Below, in pieces: positions 7,551 to 45,038 of a DNA stretch of 64,000 nt. Within the stretch, counting starts at the first letter, position 1. Each line of letters starts with the position of its first letter. Under the pieces are notes generated by a model that worked only from the letters and a program-made list of their open reading frames with translations, did no database searches and was not told where the DNA came from. The stretch comes from Ignavibacteriales bacterium (GTDB lineage Bacteria > Bacteroidota > Ignavibacteria > UBA10030): the NCBI GenBank assembly GCA_016193365.1, contig JACPSI010000017.1, positions 1-64,000 of the forward strand, in the 5' to 3' direction. Position numbers and translations under genes: made by a program.

Positions 7551-8660
7551 TTACGGTGTGTTATCTCCCCACATGATACCCAACGTGAATCGTAGAGTTT
7601 CTCCGAGAGGATGTTGGTCTTCGAACGCGCTGATGTAGCTGAAGTCGAACGTATAAATATCGAAGCGGATGCCGCCACCGAACGTCATGAATTTCCTGTT
7701 CCCAGCCCGGGGATCTTCGTAGAAATAACCTGTTCTCAGGGCGACGAGTTTTGGCGAGCCATACCAGTATTCCGCACCCAGTCCGGTCACGACCTGACGA
7801 ATCGTTTCGCTGAAGGAGTGGGCATACCACGATGAGAAGAATGCTTTATAAAACGGATCCGTTGTACCGGACGAGTCGCGCGTGATCAGCAGTTTGCTGA
7901 AATCGCCGACAAGCGTGAAGTTGTTGTATTCGCTTTGGAGCAGCTTAAGAGCGAAGCCCAAACGGAAATTCATCGGGAGCGGGTCGGCCTGGGCTTTGTC
8001 GATATACGCCATGTGTGGCCCGATATTCGAGATATTTAGACCGAGGTTGAGACGGTCGCCTAAATCATAGTCTGTAAAAGGAACAAACATTGAAACGGGC
8101 TTGTACAAAAAGCCGACATCGAAGCTGAATCCGGAGGACACTCCTCTCCCCTTTTCCACGCCGGCGCCGAAGGGAGCAATGTTGCTGTAGATGAACCGCG
8201 TGTTCACGCCGATTCCGAGGTCTGACGAAAGTTTTGTGCCGTATCCTGCTGTGAGAGCAAATTCATATCCTTTAAAAGTTTCGAGGACGGTAGGGTCATT
8301 TTCTGTCCGGTTGAATTCCCCAAGGTTGAGATACGTGATACCTGTAGAAATCGTCCCGTCAATGTCCTGCACTTCCTGTTTATAGATGAAATGAGCAATC
8401 CACAAATCGGAGAGATAAAACTGGGGAAGCCAGTTTGCGTGCGACAGGCTGATCTCCGACCCGCGTTGAAAAGCGTAGCCTGCGGGATTCCAGAACGATG
8501 CCCATCCGTCGTCTGCGAGGGCCACGCCGGCTTCGCCCATGCCGCTGGCCCGGGAGTTGGGCGCGATCAGAAGAAACGGAACGGCGGATGTGATAACCTG
8601 CGTCGAAAGCGTTTGCACAGCCAAAAACCCCGTCAACACGACAGCGGACATCCTCTTCAT
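7551..8660 (-). CDS. porV: Type IX secretion outer-membrane protein PorV
   Basis: A 369-residue outer-membrane beta-barrel of the PorV/PorQ family. In known systems PorV carries T9SS cargo to the PorU sortase. A FadL-like N-terminus reads SRASGMGEAGVALADDGWASFWNPAG after a signal peptide (MKRMSAVVLTGFLAVQTLSTQ). The frame is open up to 8768, but the ATG at 8660 is chosen because GAGGAGG lies 7 nt before it and a signal peptide follows; a hairpin and a good promoter lie upstream. It is adjacent to porU, as in other Bacteroidota, which favours PorV over PorQ. DUF5683, M6-like and lipoprotein genes follow on the same strand. Confidence 0.85.
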   Translation of the reverse strand: MKRMSAVVLTGFLAVQTLSTQVITSAVPFLLIAPNSRASGMGEAGVALADDGWASFWNPAGYAFQRGSEISLSHANWLPQFYLSDLWIAHFIYKQEVQDIDGTISTGITYLNLGEFNRTENDPTVLETFKGYEFALTAGYGTKLSSDLGIGVNTRFIYSNIAPFGAGVEKGRGVSSGFSFDVGFLYKPVSMFVPFTDYDLGDRLNLGLNISNIGPHMAYIDKAQADPLPMNFRLGFALKLLQSEYNNFTLVGDFSKLLITRDSSGTTDPFYKAFFSSWYAHSFSETIRQVVTGLGAEYWYGSPKLVALRTGYFYEDPRAGNRKFMTFGGGIRFDIYTFDFSYISAFEDQHPLGETLRFTLGIMWGDNTP

Positions 8661-8711
8661 AGAACCTCCTCGTAAAAGAATGGCGCCGGAAGCAGTAGCA
8701 TCCGGCTTTTG

Positions 8712-8740
8712 AAAGTAGGTGATTTTCAAATGAGATTCAA
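8712..8740 (-). promoter_or_regulatory. Probable porV promoter
   Basis: On the minus strand TTGAAT (8735-8740) and TACTTT (8712-8717) are separated by exactly 17 nt, a good sigma70-type match. Transcription would start near 8705. The short leader would then open with a GCCGGA/TCCGGC hairpin (about 8703-8688) just before the GAGGAGG site. It lies between the palindrome cluster and the porV start. Confidence 0.5.
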
Positions 8741-8819
8741 ACATCGTTTCCTCAAGGTTAAAGGTCATTCATGACGCTGAGAAAAGCTTCGTTCAGATGT
8801 CGCCATTGGTCGAGAAAAG

Positions 8820-8912
8820 CTTCCGAAGGTTCACCTGGAAGACTCCCGGAGTCTTACCAGGTCAACCTTTGTGAGACTCCGGGAGTCTCATTTATGACCT
8901 TCGGAAGGTCAT
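8820..8912. repeat. Nested palindrome cluster after porU
   Basis: AGACTCCCGGAGTCT (8840-8854) and AGACTCCGGGAGTCT (8874-8888) are inverted copies 19 nt apart. They are flanked by CTTCCGAAGG (8820-8829) and the perfect ATGACCTTC-G-GAAGGTCAT (894-912 of this kilobase), with ACCTGG/CCAGGT (8833-8838, 8856-8861) around the left copy. The porU stop codon (8909-8911) lies inside the last palindrome. The ACCTTCGGAAGGT unit recurs at 23878-23921. It is a REP-like element that may also terminate porU transcription. Confidence 0.65.
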
Positions 8913-11900
8913 CGCAACACGGCCATTTTCCCAAGAACCTCGACGGACTTTTGTTGATCTTGGGTTTTTGCTATGATTTTGTAAAAATACACACCGTTAG
9001 CCAGCTCGTTGCCGTCAGCATCTCTGCCGTCCCATGGGATTTGTGCAAATCTTTCGGCAAGGGCGTATGAGTTGACCGTCTGTATCAGCCTTCCCGCGAT
9101 GGTGTAGATCTTCAACTCTACGTCAATCGGATCGGGCGAGTTCCTCTGGAACGTGAACACGGTGTTTGAAGAAAACGGATTTGGAAAATTGACGACATGG
9201 TAGATGGCAAAATCTGTTTCCGAGCGCACTTCAAAAAAGATTTCTGATTCGGACGAATTGTTGTATGTGTCCCACGCCTTTACGGTGACGGAATGCCTCC
9301 CCTCGGAGAGACTTGTGAGCGGATATCTCACCTGGCCGCTTTGATACGTATCCAGGTTACTACGGTAGTAGTCCATAAGGTCGATTGGCGCCGACTGACT
9401 GCTCAAGACGGCCTGCAGGCGATGCCCGATGCCGGCGATCGAGGTGTTGATACCGTTGTCATCGAAAAGATCCACTAAAAGCGTTGCGTTTGGCTTGATT
9501 AAGTCGCCGGACCTGAATTCCTGGTCTTCAAAATAGATGGAAATTTGCGGCCCAACGGAATCCGGGACCGCGGCAGAATCCGTGCTTGCGATCGTAACAT
9601 TTTCTGTAAACCCGATTGCGTCCGTGGAGTCGCTCCACGCATACAATGAGATTCGGGACCTTGCTCCAAACGAGACGTCCTTTGGGAGCGGAAAAACGTT
9701 CTGGAATGAACCGTTTATTACAGAGACTTCGCCTCTGTACAGCAGGCTTCCATTCACTTCATAGGAAAATCCAAACCATTCGTTCACAACATTCTGTCGT
9801 TTTGCATCCAGTACTTCGATAATGCCCCTGCCGTTGAAATTCGTCCACACGGCCCCGTTTGGTCGTTTGACGTTCCCCCTGACATTCACTTTCGCAAGCG
9901 ATTGCATTGGAACAAGTTGCGCGGTCGTGTTCCCGTTGACAGAGTCTATCGAAGCATTCGCGCGGGGCGTATTGAGCCTGATGGTTGGGTCGGCAAACAA
10001 ATGATATTTCATATCGTTAATGTCCGTGAGCAGCTGTTTTGTTTGCCACATCGCGTCACCGACGCGAGCAGAGCGGCCTAACGAATCACGCTGAAAAAGA
10101 TAACCGTAGAATGTGTTGTTCAGAATCGAGTTCTGTCCGGAATACACGGCTCTCGAAGATGTCAAAAGACCGATCGCTCCTCTTTGATCCATGGCCATGA
10201 GCAATTCTCCCGAGCTTTGATCATGAGGGTCGTCGTATTGAGCGTAATTACACGTTGCCGCGACCACAAAGGCAAGCTTGTTTCCGTTCGCAAGCCGAGG
10301 GATATCGCCTTCTCGAGTGAACACAGCCTCATGGGCCCAGAGATTCGGATTACCGTGCCCCGTGTAGTTTACGATCAATGTCCCCGTGTTGAAAGCCCCA
10401 ACAATATCCGTATTGACATCCGGCTTTCGCCGACCTGTCGCGCTGCTTACCGTTGGATATTCGATCAGGTAGATTTTTTTCTGCTCAAAACTCGACGGTG
10501 TATAGAATTTTGCAAGTTCTTCAGCCTGTGCAGTGTGAAGATTTCCATCATTACCTGATGAAGTCAGCCCATCATCGGCGACAAATGTTATTCTGTTGCG
10601 CCAGGTGTCAAACGGAACAGCCGTCTCGTATGCAATAATCTTATCGACCATCGTTGCGGCTTCGCTCAGAGAACGGGCCGGAAGCCTTCCCGAAGCTAGA
10701 GAAACACGATTGCTCCCGGCGTCAAGAAACAGGTAATGGTCGTCGCTCGCATATGTATTTATCTGAAAGTTCGATTCCAAGGATTCATACGGCGGGATCC
10801 AGTTTCTCGCAGACGTTGATATGTTTTTGTAATCATAATGTCCGCCGCCGAAAAACAAAACGTATCGTGGTCGAAGCGTCCAGTTTGTTTTTGCGTATCT
10901 AAGGAAATCCCGGACTCCTATCGGGTCTGGAGCGCCGCCTGAGAATTCGTTGAAAACGTGCTCAATATTGATGACGGCTGTTTTCAAAGAATCCTGTCGC
11001 TCGCGATGTGCTTTGAGGCGTTCGGCCACGTTCAAAAATTCAGGAGGTGTAATGATGAGGAACTCGGCTCCAGGCACGATGTTGTGAACATTCGAGTTTT
11101 GAACCCGTCGCGGATTTAACGGCGTTTTGAATCCCGAAACCCCTACAACAGCAATCTCGCTTATGCCACCCGACGTGTGAGACAACTGAAATGTTACGAT
11201 TGTAGAAATCGCAGTATTAAAATCAAGTTGTACGATTCGTTTGATTGCATTGTGGGTCGTTACATCAAAAACCATCGTCTTGCGATCCGTCAAGTTACTG
11301 ACGGTATATTTGACTATTGCGGTTGTGTCCGGCGATGAGAACAGCAAAAAGTCGCCTGCCGCTTCGAATAGCCGGCGATAGTGAATTTCCACCCAGTCCA
11401 GCCAGCCCCTTGATTCCTGGTTTCCGGTTTCAAACACGACCTTCAACGTGCTTTTGTTGTTTGTCAATTCACCTGTTCGGACAAAGCTTGTCACAGGTGA
11501 TCGATAAGCGTATTCTCCAATTTGATCGATTGCCCCGACATCGACAGTACCCACGATAATGGGATTCCCTAGCAGCGAGTCGCTTTCTAACAGCCGGAAC
11601 GCATCAACCGTTTTTGACCGGCTAAGAACCACTGTTTTATAAAGTGTGGGCGATGTGAAGACATGCCCCGCGAGGGTGTGAACATAAACCGACGTGTTAT
11701 TGAGGTTATCAAACGACTGGCCAACCCATTGACGCCCGGAACGCACAAGATTAAACCGTTCCTGCTCGATGAATAGCTTTTCCTGGAAATCCGTTGCCTC
11801 CACCCCCCCCGTAAGTGATGCCACAGAGTCCATTTGAATGCCCGCTGTATCTCCGAATGTCAGAAAATAATAACTCGACTCAGTAAAATGGTTGATGTAG

Positions 11901-12292
11901 TGGCTAAAAGTCTTCGATGCCGGATTATAATTCCATCCGCGGGTCGCCCTGCCAAAAAAGATGATATAGTCGTCAGAATCGAAGGACCCGTCAAGGTCAT
12001 TGTCCACAACGTACCGGGCGATTTCTTCCAGCCCGTTTGGTCTGGGCACATTCAAGTTTTCCGGCAATTCCCTCCCTCCGTTTCCGAAAATCCGGACAGT
12101 GTTGATGTTCCCAATCGAACTGACCGCGATACCGGCGTCGATAAAGAATTTCTGGTCCAGTTTGTACAGGCCAGTTTCCCGTACCTCCAACTGATACCAG
12201 CTGCCTTGCGCCAGAGGAGAGTCGGAAACTTGAGCCCGCGTTGTTTGTTGCGCGATGTTTGCCAGAGCAAACACCAGAAGAATTTTTCGCAT
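8909..12292 (-). CDS. porU: Type IX secretion sortase PorU (C25 gingipain family)
   Basis: An 1127-residue exported cysteine protease of family C25. PorU is the outer-membrane sortase that removes cargo sorting domains. The catalytic pair is visible as GHGNP (H646) and ATCNYAQYD (C681) in a long gingipain-like domain (about 400-790). The C-terminus (VVNFPNPFSSNT ... GVYFYKIIAK) is itself sorting-domain-like. The frame is open up to 12607, but the ATG at 12292 is chosen: a signal peptide (MRKILLVFALANIAQQTTRAQ) follows it, and the upstream part covers a terminator hairpin and a palindromic repeat. There is no Shine-Dalgarno site, and the intrinsic terminator ends only 9 nt before the start. 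The porV neighbour supports the call. Confidence 0.88.
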   Translation of the reverse strand: MRKILLVFALANIAQQTTRAQVSDSPLAQGSWYQLEVRETGLYKLDQKFFIDAGIAVSSIGNINTVRIFGNGGRELPENLNVPRPNGLEEIARYVVDNDLDGSFDSDDYIIFFGRATRGWNYNPASKTFSHYINHFTESSYYFLTFGDTAGIQMDSVASLTGGVEATDFQEKLFIEQERFNLVRSGRQWVGQSFDNLNNTSVYVHTLAGHVFTSPTLYKTVVLSRSKTVDAFRLLESDSLLGNPIIVGTVDVGAIDQIGEYAYRSPVTSFVRTGELTNNKSTLKVVFETGNQESRGWLDWVEIHYRRLFEAAGDFLLFSSPDTTAIVKYTVSNLTDRKTMVFDVTTHNAIKRIVQLDFNTAISTIVTFQLSHTSGGISEIAVVGVSGFKTPLNPRRVQNSNVHNIVPGAEFLIITPPEFLNVAERLKAHRERQDSLKTAVINIEHVFNEFSGGAPDPIGVRDFLRYAKTNWTLRPRYVLFFGGGHYDYKNISTSARNWIPPYESLESNFQINTYASDDHYLFLDAGSNRVSLASGRLPARSLSEAATMVDKIIAYETAVPFDTWRNRITFVADDGLTSSGNDGNLHTAQAEELAKFYTPSSFEQKKIYLIEYPTVSSATGRRKPDVNTDIVGAFNTGTLIVNYTGHGNPNLWAHEAVFTREGDIPRLANGNKLAFVVAATCNYAQYDDPHDQSSGELLMAMDQRGAIGLLTSSRAVYSGQNSILNNTFYGYLFQRDSLGRSARVGDAMWQTKQLLTDINDMKYHLFADPTIRLNTPRANASIDSVNGNTTAQLVPMQSLAKVNVRGNVKRPNGAVWTNFNGRGIIEVLDAKRQNVVNEWFGFSYEVNGSLLYRGEVSVINGSFQNVFPLPKDVSFGARSRISLYAWSDSTDAIGFTENVTIASTDSAAVPDSVGPQISIYFEDQEFRSGDLIKPNATLLVDLFDDNGINTSIAGIGHRLQAVLSSQSAPIDLMDYYRSNLDTYQSGQVRYPLTSLSEGRHSVTVKAWDTYNNSSESEIFFEVRSETDFAIYHVVNFPNPFSSNTVFTFQRNSPDPIDVELKIYTIAGRLIQTVNSYALAERFAQIPWDGRDADGNELANGVYFYKIIAKTQDQQKSVEVLGKMAVLR

Positions 12293-12300
12293 AATAGAAA

Positions 12301-12336
12301 TAAAAAAGCCGAACAGGAAAGCCTTCCCGTTCGGCT
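12301..12336 (-). terminator. Intrinsic terminator directly before porU
   Basis: On the minus strand a 13-bp stem (AGCCGAACGGGAA against TTCCTGTTCGGCT, one G-T pair) with a 4-nt loop is followed by six T. The T run ends 9 nt before the porU ATG. A second hairpin (GCTCAAA/TTTGAGC at 12334-12352) overlaps its 5' foot by 3 nt, so the two may compete. Confidence 0.8.
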
Positions 12337-12472
12337 CAAACTTTTTTTGAGCATCGCCGAATTCAGTAAAGGCTTTTACATCAAAGTTCCCGAGCGCGAC
12401 ATGTACTCGACTCAGGAACGAAACCTTTACCAAACTTCGATAGATACTCCGAGTTTCTCGACCAGTGAACTT
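12301..12472 (-). ncRNA. Candidate structured RNA or porU leader (unclassified)
   Basis: A good promoter (12479-12507) and a strong terminator (12301-12336) bracket about 170 nt. Inside, GTTCCTGAG (12411-12419) pairs with CTCGGGAAC (12386-12394), and GTAAAGG (12424-12430) pairs exactly with CCTTTAC (12366-12372), giving a nested rod-like fold. A frame is open through the segment, but it reads like no known protein and would run through the terminator hairpin. Size and rod shape would suit a 6S-like RNA; an attenuating leader of porU is equally possible. No Rfam class is recognised. Confidence 0.5.
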
Positions 12473-12478
12473 GGACAC

Positions 12479-12507
12479 AAGATAATGAATCGCTTCTGAA
12501 GAGTCAA
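12479..12507 (-). promoter_or_regulatory. Promoter of the candidate RNA/porU leader
   Basis: TTGACT (12502-12507) and TATCTT (12479-12484) on the minus strand are separated by exactly 17 nt. The predicted start is near 12472. Confidence 0.6.
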
Positions 12508-12548
12508 GAACGGGCTCTTCAATGTGATTCGCGGCAAATACTGATGTT

Positions 12549-12594
12549 AAACCTGACAGGTCGCAAAAGAATTCCAAAGACACCTGCCAGGTTT
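12549..12594. repeat. Paired ACCTGACAGGT palindrome
   Basis: ACCTGACAGGT (12551-12561) and ACCTGCCAGGT (12582-12592) are two near-perfect palindromes 20 nt apart, flanked by AA and TT so the whole forms a larger inverted repeat. The same unit and spacing occur at 44995-45038. Here it lies between the glgA promoter and the promoter of the candidate RNA, not after a stop codon. Confidence 0.65.
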
Positions 12595-12619
12595 CACTGT
12601 GGTTCATTCCGGTTTCGAA

Positions 12620-12648
12620 TTGCGATTGGAGAAAATTTTGGCTAAATT
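12620..12648 (+). promoter_or_regulatory. Probable glgA operon promoter
   Basis: TTGCGA (12620-12625) and TAAATT (12643-12648) are 17 nt apart, 34 nt upstream of the glgA ATG. It is the only clear promoter seen before the long plus-strand gene run. Confidence 0.5.
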
Positions 12649-12681
12649 GAGTGGGTGACTATGATTTTTGCCTCGTTTTGA

Positions 12682-14175
12682 ATGTCAAGACCCATCAACA
12701 TTCTGTTCGTTTCAAGTGAAGTAGACCCATTTGCGAAGACCGGCGGTCTCGCCGATGTCTCCAGCGCCCTGCCAAAGGCCATCAAAGAGCTTGGACATGA
12801 AATTCGCATCATGATGCCCCGTTATCGCTTCATTGGCGAACGCAAATTCAAGCTTCATGATATTATCCGGCTCAAAGAAATTCCTATTCCCCTCGGGAAC
12901 CAGTCGGAACTTGGCAACGTCAAATCCTCGTTTATCAGCAACATGAAGGAAAAGGTCCAGGTCTATTTTTTGGACAACGAGAAGTTTTTCGGGCGAGACG
13001 GCGTCTACCAGAGTCCACAGAGCAAGAAAGACTATAAAGACAACGATGAACGGTTTATTTTCTTTTGCCGCGGTGTGCTGGAAACGCTCAAACGCCTCGG
13101 CTGGCAACCCGACATTATCCATTGTAACGACTGGCAAACAGGATTGATTCCTGCCTATCTCAAGACGATTTACACGAACGACTCATTCTATAAAAACAGC
13201 AAGACTGTTTTCACGATTCACAACATGGCCTACCAGGGCGCTTTTCCGGCAGAATCATTCGGAAAATCAGGGCTTCCAAAAGCGGCTTTTAAATCAGACG
13301 GCGTCGAGGCTTACGGAAAATTCAACTTCCTGAAGGCCGGCCTTTATTTTGCCGACACGATTACAACGGTCAGCGAAAAATACGCGCATGAAATCTGCAG
13401 TTCGAACGAGTTTGGTGCCGGTTTGAATGGACTCCTGGAAAGCCGGAAAAAGGACCTCAAAGGCATCCTCAATGGAATAGACTATCAAATGTGGAATCCG
13501 CTCTTTGATGACCACATCTACCGAAAATATGATGCGAAGTCGATTGAAGCGAAGGTGGACAACAAAAAGGCTCTTTGCGCCAAGTTCAACCTCACTTTTA
13601 AAGAGTCCACACCTGTCATAGGAGCTATTTGCAGACTCGTGGAGCAAAAAGGGTTTGAGCTTGTCCTGGAGATTCTCGACGATATGCTCAAGCTGGACGT
13701 TCAATATGTCATGGTTGCTTCTGGAGATAAAGATCTCGAGAAGAAATTCGAATCGGCCCAGAAGAAGCACTCACACAAGCTCGGCATTTTCTTTGGGTTC
13801 GATGAAGAGCTCGCCCATCTCGTTGAAGCCGGGAGCGACATGTTCTTTATGCCCTCCAAATACGAACCGTGCGGACTGAACCAGATGTACAGCATGAGGT
13901 ACGGAACAATCCCCGTTGTCCGCGCCACGGGAGGCCTGGACGACACGGTTGAAGACTATTCGGGAAACGGCAAGGGAACCGGGTTCAAATTTGAAAAATA
14001 CGACTCCAAGGAATTGCTCAAAGCCATCCACCGTGCTCTCAAAGTCTTTCAGCAGCCCGAAGAATGGAAAAAGATAATGCGCAACGGCATGCAACGGGAC
14101 TTTTCTTGGGAGCATTCTGCCAAGAAATACATCAACCTCTACAAAGACCTCCTGAAATATCATCGTGAAGTTTGA
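12682..14175 (+). CDS. glgA: Glycogen synthase (ADP-glucose type)
   Basis: A 497-residue GT5 glycosyltransferase that adds glucose from ADP-glucose to alpha-1,4-glucan in the cytoplasm. The N-terminal substrate motif KTGGLADV is at 19-26; IHCNDWQTGLIP and FTIHNMAYQG follow in the N-terminal Rossmann domain. The C-terminal domain has the family's EPCGLNQMYSMRYGTIPVVRATGGL motif region (about 395-420). Length is normal for GlgA. It is the first gene of a plus-strand run and overlaps gmhB by 11 nt. No other glycogen gene is in the window. Confidence 0.93.
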   Translation: MSRPINILFVSSEVDPFAKTGGLADVSSALPKAIKELGHEIRIMMPRYRFIGERKFKLHDIIRLKEIPIPLGNQSELGNVKSSFISNMKEKVQVYFLDNEKFFGRDGVYQSPQSKKDYKDNDERFIFFCRGVLETLKRLGWQPDIIHCNDWQTGLIPAYLKTIYTNDSFYKNSKTVFTIHNMAYQGAFPAESFGKSGLPKAAFKSDGVEAYGKFNFLKAGLYFADTITTVSEKYAHEICSSNEFGAGLNGLLESRKKDLKGILNGIDYQMWNPLFDDHIYRKYDAKSIEAKVDNKKALCAKFNLTFKESTPVIGAICRLVEQKGFELVLEILDDMLKLDVQYVMVASGDKDLEKKFESAQKKHSHKLGIFFGFDEELAHLVEAGSDMFFMPSKYEPCGLNQMYSMRYGTIPVVRATGGLDDTVEDYSGNGKGTGFKFEKYDSKELLKAIHRALKVFQQPEEWKKIMRNGMQRDFSWEHSAKKYINLYKDLLKYHREV

Positions 14176-28935: not shown

Positions 28936-28950
28936 CCGAACTTGGTACTC

Positions 28951-29025
28951 GCGGCGATGGAGTTCGCCAAAACCGAGGCCTATCAATTCGTCAAGTGGAT
29001 TGAGACGTCTTCTAATGACTCCTAC
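28951..29025 (+). promoter_or_regulatory. Fluoride riboswitch (crcB motif)
   Basis: The aptamer's conserved ends are visible: GGCGATGG-AGTTCGCC (28953-28968), then AAAACCG, a variable stem-loop, and CTAATGACTCCTAC (29012-29025). It precedes crcB and a DUF190 gene, the classical fluoride-resistance cargo. The 3' strand ACTCCTAC is reused as the 5' arm of a terminator, so fluoride binding should prevent termination and switch the genes on, as shown for this class. Confidence 0.9.
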
Positions 29026-29057
29026 ACTGAAACATCGGTGGTAGGAGTTTTTTCTTT
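29018..29057 (+). terminator. Expression-platform terminator of the fluoride riboswitch
   Basis: ACTCCTAC (29018-29025) pairs exactly with GTAGGAGT (29041-29048) and is followed by a T-rich run (TTTTTTCTTTTT). The 5' arm overlaps the 3' end of the aptamer, giving mutually exclusive folds. Confidence 0.85.
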
Positions 29058-44962: not shown

Positions 44963-44994
44963 CGTAGAGAAGACGTGAGGCGTTTCACCACAAA

Positions 44995-45038
44995 AACCTG
45001 ACAGGTCCCCAGAGAGTACAAAAGAGACCTGTCAGGTT
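44995..45038. repeat. Paired ACCTGACAGGT palindrome after a hydrolase gene
   Basis: AACCTGACAGGTC (44995-45007) and GACCTGTCAGGTT (45026-45038) are exact inverted copies, with the palindromic units ACCTG-A/T-CAGGT 20 nt apart. The right copy ends 4 nt before the stop codon of the exported amidohydrolase (45043-45045). Same unit and spacing as at 12549-12594. Confidence 0.7.

What the first reader, a model, noticed from the sequence alone, without database searches (positions are those of the whole stretch)
12301..12507. Candidate structured RNA or attenuating leader immediately before porU
A TTGACT-17-TATCTT promoter and a 13-bp terminator bracket about 170 nt with two nested perfect or near-perfect helices. 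The terminator T run ends 9 nt before the porU start, which has no Shine-Dalgarno site. Either this is a small RNA gene (6S-like in size and shape) or the main type IX sortase is controlled by termination.
Basis: partly seen in the sequence, partly recalled or inferred. Interest (0 to 1): 0.7.

Follow-up and report, generated by a model that had tools for sequence, protein, structure and literature searches.

The report
RNA attenuator before type IX sortase
In front of the gene for a bacterial protein-secretion enzyme (the type IX sortase PorU) lies a conserved RNA leader whose hairpins exclude one another, predicted to switch transcription of the gene on or off; the same kind of leader precedes a second secretion-family gene in related bacteria, so one unknown factor may control both.

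Summary
The minus strand carries a sigma-70-like promoter (12507-12479), a rod (12449-12349) and a 14-bp terminator-like hairpin (12337-12306) with six T's, ending 9 nt before the porU start codon at 12292. Folding z-score -6.3.

It is not 6S RNA: the 6S match lies on another contig, and no Rfam family reaches threshold here.

A covariance model of the leader finds one strong copy in 56 of 61 genomes (43 of the 56 had served to build it): 52 directly upstream of porU, 4 at contig ends. Variants occur in other families of the class.

The 3' arm of the rod can pair with its 5' arm or with the 5' arm of the terminator. These pairings and the terminator fit better within a genome than between genomes; control pairings do not or hardly do. 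This is the anti-antiterminator / antiterminator / terminator plan of known attenuators.

A second leader of this plan precedes a PorV/PorQ-family gene in relatives, but was not found in the window's genome.

Termination, antitermination and the signal are untested; at equilibrium the terminator state always wins in silico.

The parts
12502..12507 (-). -35 element TTGACT
   Evidence: TTGAC in 42 of 43 aligned leaders (partly by selection)
12479..12484 (-). -10 element TATCTT, 17-nt spacer; transcript would start near 12472
   Evidence: start site is inferred
12421..12449 (-). P1 5' arm (anti-antiterminator), with the conserved core TTGGTAAAGG (TTGTTAAAGG in many relatives)
   Evidence: fold; covariation; swap tests
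12386..12419 (-). apical hairpin P2, variable in relatives; two of its pairs changed on both sides and kept, one broken, in the genome of the same genus
12349..12375 (-). P1 3' arm; pairs with the P1 5' arm or, alternatively, with the terminator 5' arm
12356..12373 (-). antiterminator, upstream strand (15 pairs with 12335-12321)
   Evidence: energy of the nascent 3' half -18.5 kcal/mol
12321..12335 (-). antiterminator, downstream strand = 5' arm and loop side of the terminator
12306..12337 (-). intrinsic-terminator-like hairpin, 14 pairs, -22.5 kcal/mol
12302..12307 (-). T run of six; 9 nt to the porU start codon
8909..12292 (-). porU, type IX secretion sortase, 1127 aa (NF033707, 987.6 bits, cut-off 420)
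7551..8768 (-). porV, downstream of porU on the same strand (NF033710, 265 bits, cut-off 250)

Best explanation
The segment is a conserved leader of porU that likely works as a cis-acting transcription attenuator: a promoter-like site, a rod, an alternative antiterminator pairing and a terminator-like hairpin lie in this order directly before the porU start codon. In the predicted default state the rod P1 (12449-12421 with 12375-12349) forms first, leaves the 5' arm of the terminator free, and RNA polymerase would stop at 12307-12302, releasing an RNA of about 170 nt. If something keeps the P1 5' arm from pairing, the P1 3' arm would pair instead with 12335-12321, the terminator would not form in time, and porU (probably with porV behind it) would be transcribed. 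The mutual exclusion of the pairings, their conservation and the single strong copy per genome are shown by calls; termination, read-through, timing and the trigger are inferred. Because the P1 core (TTGTTARAG) is shared by a second leader in front of a PorV/PorQ-family gene in relatives, I expect one trans-acting RNA-binding factor, unknown, that acts on P1 of both.
For: Covariance model R1: 56 of 61 genomes (own plus 60 relatives) have exactly one match at E <= 0.0013; 43 of the 56 had served to build the model, 13 had not; comparing the listings, 52 lie on the porU contig, same strand, just upstream, and 4 lie at contig ends. Swap tests (mean duplex energy, native against partners from other genomes): 43 leaders, antiterminator -16.0 against -11.8, 0 of 2000 as low; P1 and terminator likewise 0 of 2000; controls P5:T5 and P3:T3 z +0.8 and -1.0. 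Same-family set of 27: antiterminator z -7.6, terminator -8.2, P1 -4.3, controls -0.8 and -2.0. One per genus, 28: antiterminator z -7.1, controls +1.0 and -1.4. Terminator loop letters alone, unpaired in the terminator, fit the P1 3' arm: z -4.5, control -1.3, 26 leaders. Against shuffled terminator 5' arms: -16.0 against -8.0, 0 of 200. Pair counts on 27 leaders: terminator 92.5% of cells paired, P1 88.6%, antiterminator 76.2% with 16 double-change cells (0 of 500 shuffles as many). At least 6 T in the 9 nt at the stem end in 42 of 43, and 7-28 nt to the start codon in 43. The antiterminator forms at least 6 pairs in 40 of 43 nascent 3' halves from which the P1 5' arm and the terminator 3' arm are absent. 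The neighbour upstream is often glgA but not always (M61 peptidase, CofH/MqnC-like, tRNA genes), while the leader stays with porU; in G289 it heads a flippase-like gene followed at once by porU. Second leader with the same plan.
Against: Full-length minimum-energy folds show P1 plus terminator in 43 of 43 and the antiterminator in none; with the P1 5' arm blocked the antiterminator still beats the terminator in only 8 (minimum energy) or 10 (ensemble) of 43, and not in the window; in nascent RNA before the terminator 3' arm it displaces P1 fully in only 4 of 43. So the switch needs kinetics or a bound factor. Three leaders (L059, L066, L071) have 0-5 antiterminator pairs. Antiterminator pairs with a change on both sides (5 of 11) are not more than shuffles give (115 of 500 reach it), and for P1 4 of 13 (33 of 500). 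The swap tests use no tree, and one control in one set is not quite flat (P3:T3 z -2.0, 133 of 5000). No trigger, ligand or protein is known. In the second leader the antiterminator exceeds foreign partners only weakly (z -2.3, 60 of 5000; 13 leaders), though clearly shuffled ones (0 of 500).
Confidence: 0.72

Rival explanations
1. A free-standing small RNA gene that happens to sit before porU: promoter to terminator is the whole gene, the RNA of about 170 nt acts in trans, and porU is read from elsewhere.
For: Own promoter-like site, strong terminator-like hairpin and stable rod; one copy per genome, as expected of an RNA gene.
Against: In 52 of 56 genomes it lies directly before porU and the other 4 are at contig ends; the terminator abuts the start codon (7-28 nt), leaving no room for a promoter behind it, though one inside the leader is not excluded; the antiterminator pairing has no role in a plain sRNA.
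Confidence: 0.12
2. A translational switch: the last hairpin ends about 15 nt before the start codon and would hide or free the start region of a full-length mRNA; the T run would only be an A/U-rich start region.
For: Hairpin within 7-28 nt of the start codon in all 43; in the diverged copy of G013 the T run is weak (CTTGCCGTTT) while, by eye, the P1 3' side and the terminator loop stay complementary.
Against: At least 6 T in the 9 nt at the stem end in 42 of 43, as expected of an intrinsic terminator. Both levels could act together.
Confidence: 0.1
3. Ribosome-mediated attenuation by a leader peptide.
For: The reading frame is open from 12607 into porU in the window; in family f47 the porU start codon appears to lie inside the rod (by eye).
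Against: ATG or GTG occurs upstream of the P1 5' arm in only 14 of 43 leaders, with no common position or length; reading from the TTG of the core gives 4 to 36 codons, or an open frame in two of the 39 leaders in which the core was found by the script, in all three frames; the frame is broken in the genome of the same genus.
Confidence: 0.04
4. Chance structure or an ordinary terminator of an upstream gene.
For: Promoter- and terminator-like sites in the region are no more frequent than in shuffles.
Against: The upstream gene glgA is divergent in the window, so nothing there needs terminating; conservation and covariation.
Confidence: 0.02

Closest known systems
rplJL (L10) leader of Bacillus subtilis, anti-antiterminator / antiterminator / terminator attenuator (PMC4538822; start of abstract and passages seen)
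   Same: Three consecutive structures, each sharing letters with the next, the last one followed by a U run; promoter upstream, genes downstream
   Different: Here the gene is a secretion sortase; no conserved leader peptide; the factor is unknown; in several leaders (such as L068, L072) the terminator repeats the sequence of the P1 5' arm
6S RNA (RF00013)
   Same: Length of about 170 nt and rod shape
   Different: No match here; the 6S match is on another contig
trpB ncRNA motif (RF04312)
   Same: Hairpin followed by terminator; best Rfam match of the region, 31.3 bits
   Different: Far below its gathering score of 59; not matched in 12 related leaders searched at E <= 1
PorXY-SigP control of type IX secretion in Porphyromonas gingivalis (PMC7712824; passages seen)
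   Same: Regulates porU and porV expression
   Different: Acts through a two-component system and an ECF sigma factor; the passages seen speak of no leader RNA
Flavobacterium psychrophilum transcriptome (PMC9723704; passages seen)
   Same: porU listed with a mapped promoter in the section on promoters and alternative sigma factors; 64 structured 5' regions reported as likely regulatory
   Different: Whether porU is among those 64 was not in the passages seen; R1 found no strong match outside the class in 198 genomes of the phylum

Membership tests
6S RNA (RF00013) | match to the covariance model | tested here: not met
   No 6S match at E <= 10 in 12200-12700; 6S-like match at G000:C77:6038-6298, 40 bits, below the cut-off of 46.4
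transcription attenuator of the anti-antiterminator type | promoter and U-tailed terminator before the gene | tested here: met
   sequence only:
transcription attenuator of the anti-antiterminator type | antiterminator that shares letters with both the first structure and the terminator | tested here: met
   weak or missing in L059, L066, L071
transcription attenuator of the anti-antiterminator type | condition-dependent termination and read-through | not testable with these tools
   no RNA data
riboswitch | conserved ligand-binding domain | tested here: inconclusive
   The apical part varies in length and sequence across the order; P1 itself is conserved; ligand binding cannot be tested
ribosome-mediated attenuator | conserved leader peptide | tested here: not met
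trpB ncRNA motif (RF04312) | score over the gathering threshold | tested here: not met
   31.3 against 59 bits

The most novel reading that the evidence does not exclude
A family of attenuator leaders spread over a bacterial class forms an RNA-level regulon for type IX secretion: porU and a PorV/PorQ-family gene carry leaders with the same P1 core and a terminator-borne copy of it, read by one unknown RNA-binding factor that reports on the secretion system.
Probability: 0.35. Interest if true: 0.82.

Novelty: new member of a known kind. Interest (0 to 1): 0.66.

Why it matters
How type IX secretion is regulated outside Porphyromonas is little known (my recollection; PMC7712824, of which I saw passages, describes PorXY-SigP in Porphyromonas). 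A leader found in several families of the class, with one strong copy per genome at the sortase gene and a sibling leader at a PorV/PorQ-family gene, gives a concrete RNA target to test and a handle (the shared P1 core) to fish for the regulator. It would also be a structured-RNA family without a match in Rfam 15.

Tried and rejected
6S RNA: rejected. Leader peptide: rejected for the 43 aligned leaders. N-terminal coding extension of PorU: the frame open from 12607 is broken in the genome of the same genus. trpB motif: below threshold, no match in 12 relatives. Equilibrium folding as proof of a switch: it does not show the antiterminator. First antiterminator test on the second leader gave no signal (z +1.2), because the copied motif there straddles the loop and the 3' arm of the terminator; I then took the centre of the terminator as partner and got z -2.3, so that partner was chosen after seeing the sequences. 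Literature: searches listed nothing on an attenuator or leader RNA at porU; the lists were capped (20 of 23, 20 of 454, 12 of 778, 15 of 61, 10 of 10, 8 of 80 papers); only listings and starts of abstracts seen, except passages of PMC7712824, PMC9723704 and PMC4538822. Many subscription papers and all bioRxiv preprints are missing from the library, so this is no proof of absence.

Rows dropped before counts: L043 (G013, diverged, no recognised promoter) and contig-cut or unread loci L048, L052, L054, L063 were left out of alignment A1. In some searches, of 30 loci fetched, one had no recognised frame (L260), 12 had no full leader by the script (one of them, L259, has one by eye, and its genome G023 has an R2 match), 2 had no hairpin by the script (L253, L275), one had no motif (L274); L276 was left out. 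Of 15 weaker R1 matches besides G057 (E 0.0125-0.84) five were read. R2 matches in G037:C4 and G047:C51 and a reverse-strand one in G035 were not looked into.

Full report
The place. In the window porU (1127 aa, minus strand, 12292-8909; NCBIfam NF033707 987.6 bits, cut-off 420) is followed by porV (NF033710 265 bits, cut-off 250) on the same strand, and glgA starts divergently at 12682. Between them lie a promoter-like pair TTGACT-17-TATCTT (12507-12479), a long rod and a 14-bp terminator-like hairpin with six T's that end 9 nt before the porU start codon. The segment folds far better than shuffles (z -6.3, 0 of 200). Promoter- and terminator-like sites as such are not in excess in this region; the case rests on conservation.

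Not 6S. Rfam has no match at threshold here; the best of seven matches at E <= 10 in 12200-12700 is the trpB motif (31.3 bits, gathering 59). The 6S model matches other places: in the own genome G000:C77:6038-6298 (40 bits, under the cut-off of 46.4) and in 8 of 40 relatives, 3 of these over the cut-off. Twelve related leaders with flanks gave no Rfam match to the leader itself at E <= 1; the two matches listed are a tRNA and a chance-level match beside one leader.

Conservation. The DNA matches one genome of the same genus at 80% over letters 3-211 of 211; in a pairwise alignment the leader is 82% identical and 12512-12690 is 51%. Of 57 pairs in the predicted fold 44 are unchanged there, 6 changed on one side and kept, 2 changed on both sides and kept, 5 broken; 17 of 60 unpaired letters differ. 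I read the DNA before porU in genomes and aligned 43 leaders from behind the -10 element to the start codon, 27 from the window's family and 16 from other families of the order. A covariance model built from this (R1) was run on 61 genomes: 57 have a match at E <= 1 and 56 at E <= 0.0013, one strong match each. Of the 56, 43 had served to build the model and 13 had not. Comparing the listings, 52 of the 56 lie on the porU contig, same strand, just upstream; the other 4 (G011, G027, G044, G051) lie at contig ends. Of the five without a strong match, G057 (E 0.27) and G050 have a recognisable leader, G013 a diverged one, and in G022 and G053 porU is cut by a contig end.

Beyond the order. Of 80 genomes of the class 19 have a match at E <= 0.01; of 198 of the phylum 12 at E <= 0.1, and the 9 at E <= 2.4e-5 are all in the same class. 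Reading porU upstream regions of other families showed, partly by eye, the same order of parts in f12, f43 and f45 and a variant in f47; f46 has matches in two genomes. No forward match at E <= 5 was found before porU in four f7 genomes (L236, L237, L238, L245) nor in one genome each of f9, f11, f13, f14 and f17, so the leader is far from universal in the class. Named records gave 28 of 79 loci with a forward match at E <= 0.5; several of these are the same genomes as before under their names, and the 79 include porU of other Bacteroidota. In G289 (f44) the leader heads a gene with the Pfam domain Polysacc_synt (flippase-like), which is followed at once by porU. In f47 I see no separate terminator: the rod itself ends in a T run and the porU start codon appears to lie within it (by eye).

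Neighbours. In 12 loci of the order the nearest long frame upstream of the promoter reads as divergent glgA in 8 by eye (two of these confirmed as starch synthase by Pfam), as M61 peptidase in L070 and CofH/MqnC-like in L056, and is unassigned in L068 and L033. tRNA genes lie upstream in G013 and G136. So glgA often accompanies the leader, but is not needed, and points the other way.

The switch. The 3' arm of the rod (P3) is complementary both to the 5' arm (P5) and to the 5' arm and loop of the terminator (T5). In the window P3 12373-12356 pairs with 12335-12321 (15 pairs, -18.5 kcal/mol for the nascent 3' half), against -22.5 for the terminator and -44.0 for the rod region. To test whether this is chance I exchanged partners between genomes. 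Over 43 leaders the native antiterminator energy is -16.0 on average, exchanged -11.8 (0 of 2000 as low); P5:T5 and P3:T3, which share the same ancestry but should not pair, show nothing (z +0.8, -1.0). A repeat with slightly different pieces gave antiterminator z -10.2 and controls +0.1 (P5:T3), +1.2 (P5:T5) and -1.7 (P3:T3). In the family alone (27 leaders) z is -7.6 with controls -0.8 and -2.0; with one leader per genus (28) -7.1 with controls +1.0 and -1.4. Using only loop letters that are unpaired in the terminator still gives z -4.5 (26 leaders; control -1.3). Shuffled T5 gives -8.0 (0 of 200 as low). Column counts on the 27: terminator 92.5% paired with 9 of 12 pairs changed on both sides; P1 88.6% with 4 of 13; antiterminator 76.2% with 5 of 11. 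In double-change cells (25, 11, 16) none of 500 shuffles reaches any of the three; in number of double-change pairs this holds only for the terminator (0 of 500), while 33 of 500 reach P1 and 115 of 500 the antiterminator. RNAalifold on all 43 gives 19 pairs, 11 with double changes.

Against it. Full-length folds never show the antiterminator (0 of 43); with the 5' arm blocked it beats the terminator in 8 (minimum energy) or 10 (ensemble) of 43 and not in the window; in nascent RNA with the 5' arm free it displaces P1 fully in 4 of 43. So the pairing can only matter during transcription or with a bound factor. In 40 of 43 it forms at least 6 pairs when the P1 5' arm and the terminator 3' arm are left out. 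These steps are inference.

What could be sensed. There is no shared leader peptide: ATG or GTG precedes the 5' arm in 14 of 43, at no fixed place. The apical part varies in length and sequence across the order, so a conserved ligand pocket is not evident; the conserved letters include those of P1 (invariant or at least 90%: TTG.TAA.GGTT and CCTTT). I therefore favour a factor that acts on P1.

A second leader. Of 15 weaker R1 matches (E 0.0125-0.84) I read five; three of the five (G029, G040, G059) are leaders of the same plan before a PorV/PorQ-family gene. By comparison, five more of the 15 (G009, G016, G023, G027, G031:C142) lie before that gene, 8 of 15 in all. The proteins pass the PorV/PorQ family cut-off (NF033709, 111-124 bits against 90) and score best with PorV2 (NF052325, 199-221 bits) below its cut-off of 325. 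The gene is found in 55 of 61 genomes at E <= 1e-60; of 30 loci fetched, 15 gave a leader by script, 13 of which were aligned. Typical ones read TTGTTAGAG...CTCTAACAA, then CCGAATT...AATTCGG and a T run. The copy of the 5' arm here straddles loop and 3' arm of the terminator; P3 pairs with the terminator centre at -12.3 against -7.9 for shuffled centres (0 of 500) and -10.9 for foreign ones (z -2.3, 60 of 5000; controls +1.7 and -1.0). A model from these 13 (R2) finds matches in 22 of 41 genomes at E <= 1. By comparison, 15 of the 16 at E <= 0.0115 lie before the PorV/PorQ-family gene (8 of these had served to build R2, 7 had not); the sixteenth (G032) and four weaker ones (G014, G033, G042, G036; E 0.015-0.17) are porU leaders, which R2 had not been built from; three matches were not looked into. 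The window's genome and the one of the same genus have the gene but no R2 match.

Verdict. A family of attenuator-like leaders on type IX secretion genes that Rfam 15 does not match. The kind of mechanism is known; family and targets are new to the searches made here.

Noticed in passing
window 8909-12292 (-): PorU of the window and of the genome of the same genus lacks an N-terminal stretch of about 200 aa that PorU of most relatives read has; in G029's PorU it matches Propeptide_C25 (PF08126, 27.1 bits, cut-off 22). G006 and, from coordinates, G019 seem to lack it too.
   Followed up: partly
window 28944-29031 (+): Fluoride riboswitch (RF01734, 41.3 bits, gathering 34).
   Followed up: no
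window 12549-12592: Inverted repeat (ACCTGTCAGGT / ACCTGGCAGGT arms) between the porU and glgA promoters; similar copies at 44994-45038 in the window and on contig C23, weaker ones (E 0.4) on three other contigs.
   Followed up: partly
G000:C77:6038-6298 (L086): Probable 6S RNA of this genome, 40 bits, below Rfam's cut-off of 46.4; matches in 8 of 40 relatives, 5 of them below the cut-off too, so the model may under-score this group.
   Followed up: no
L115, L116, L117 (family f47): By eye, the porU start codon lies inside the rod, whose own end is U-tailed within the signal-peptide codons.
   Followed up: no
L230:711-892 and L228: Two further weak R1 matches with a U-tailed hairpin, before a frame of unknown identity (L230) or no clear gene (L228).
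   Followed up: no
G037:C4:58752-58863 and G047:C51:6914-7034: Weak R2 matches (E 0.05, 0.5) in two genomes of one genus, not at porU; possibly a third kind of target.
   Followed up: no
G320:C140 and G314:C104: Two tandem porU-like genes in two genomes of family f43.
   Followed up: no
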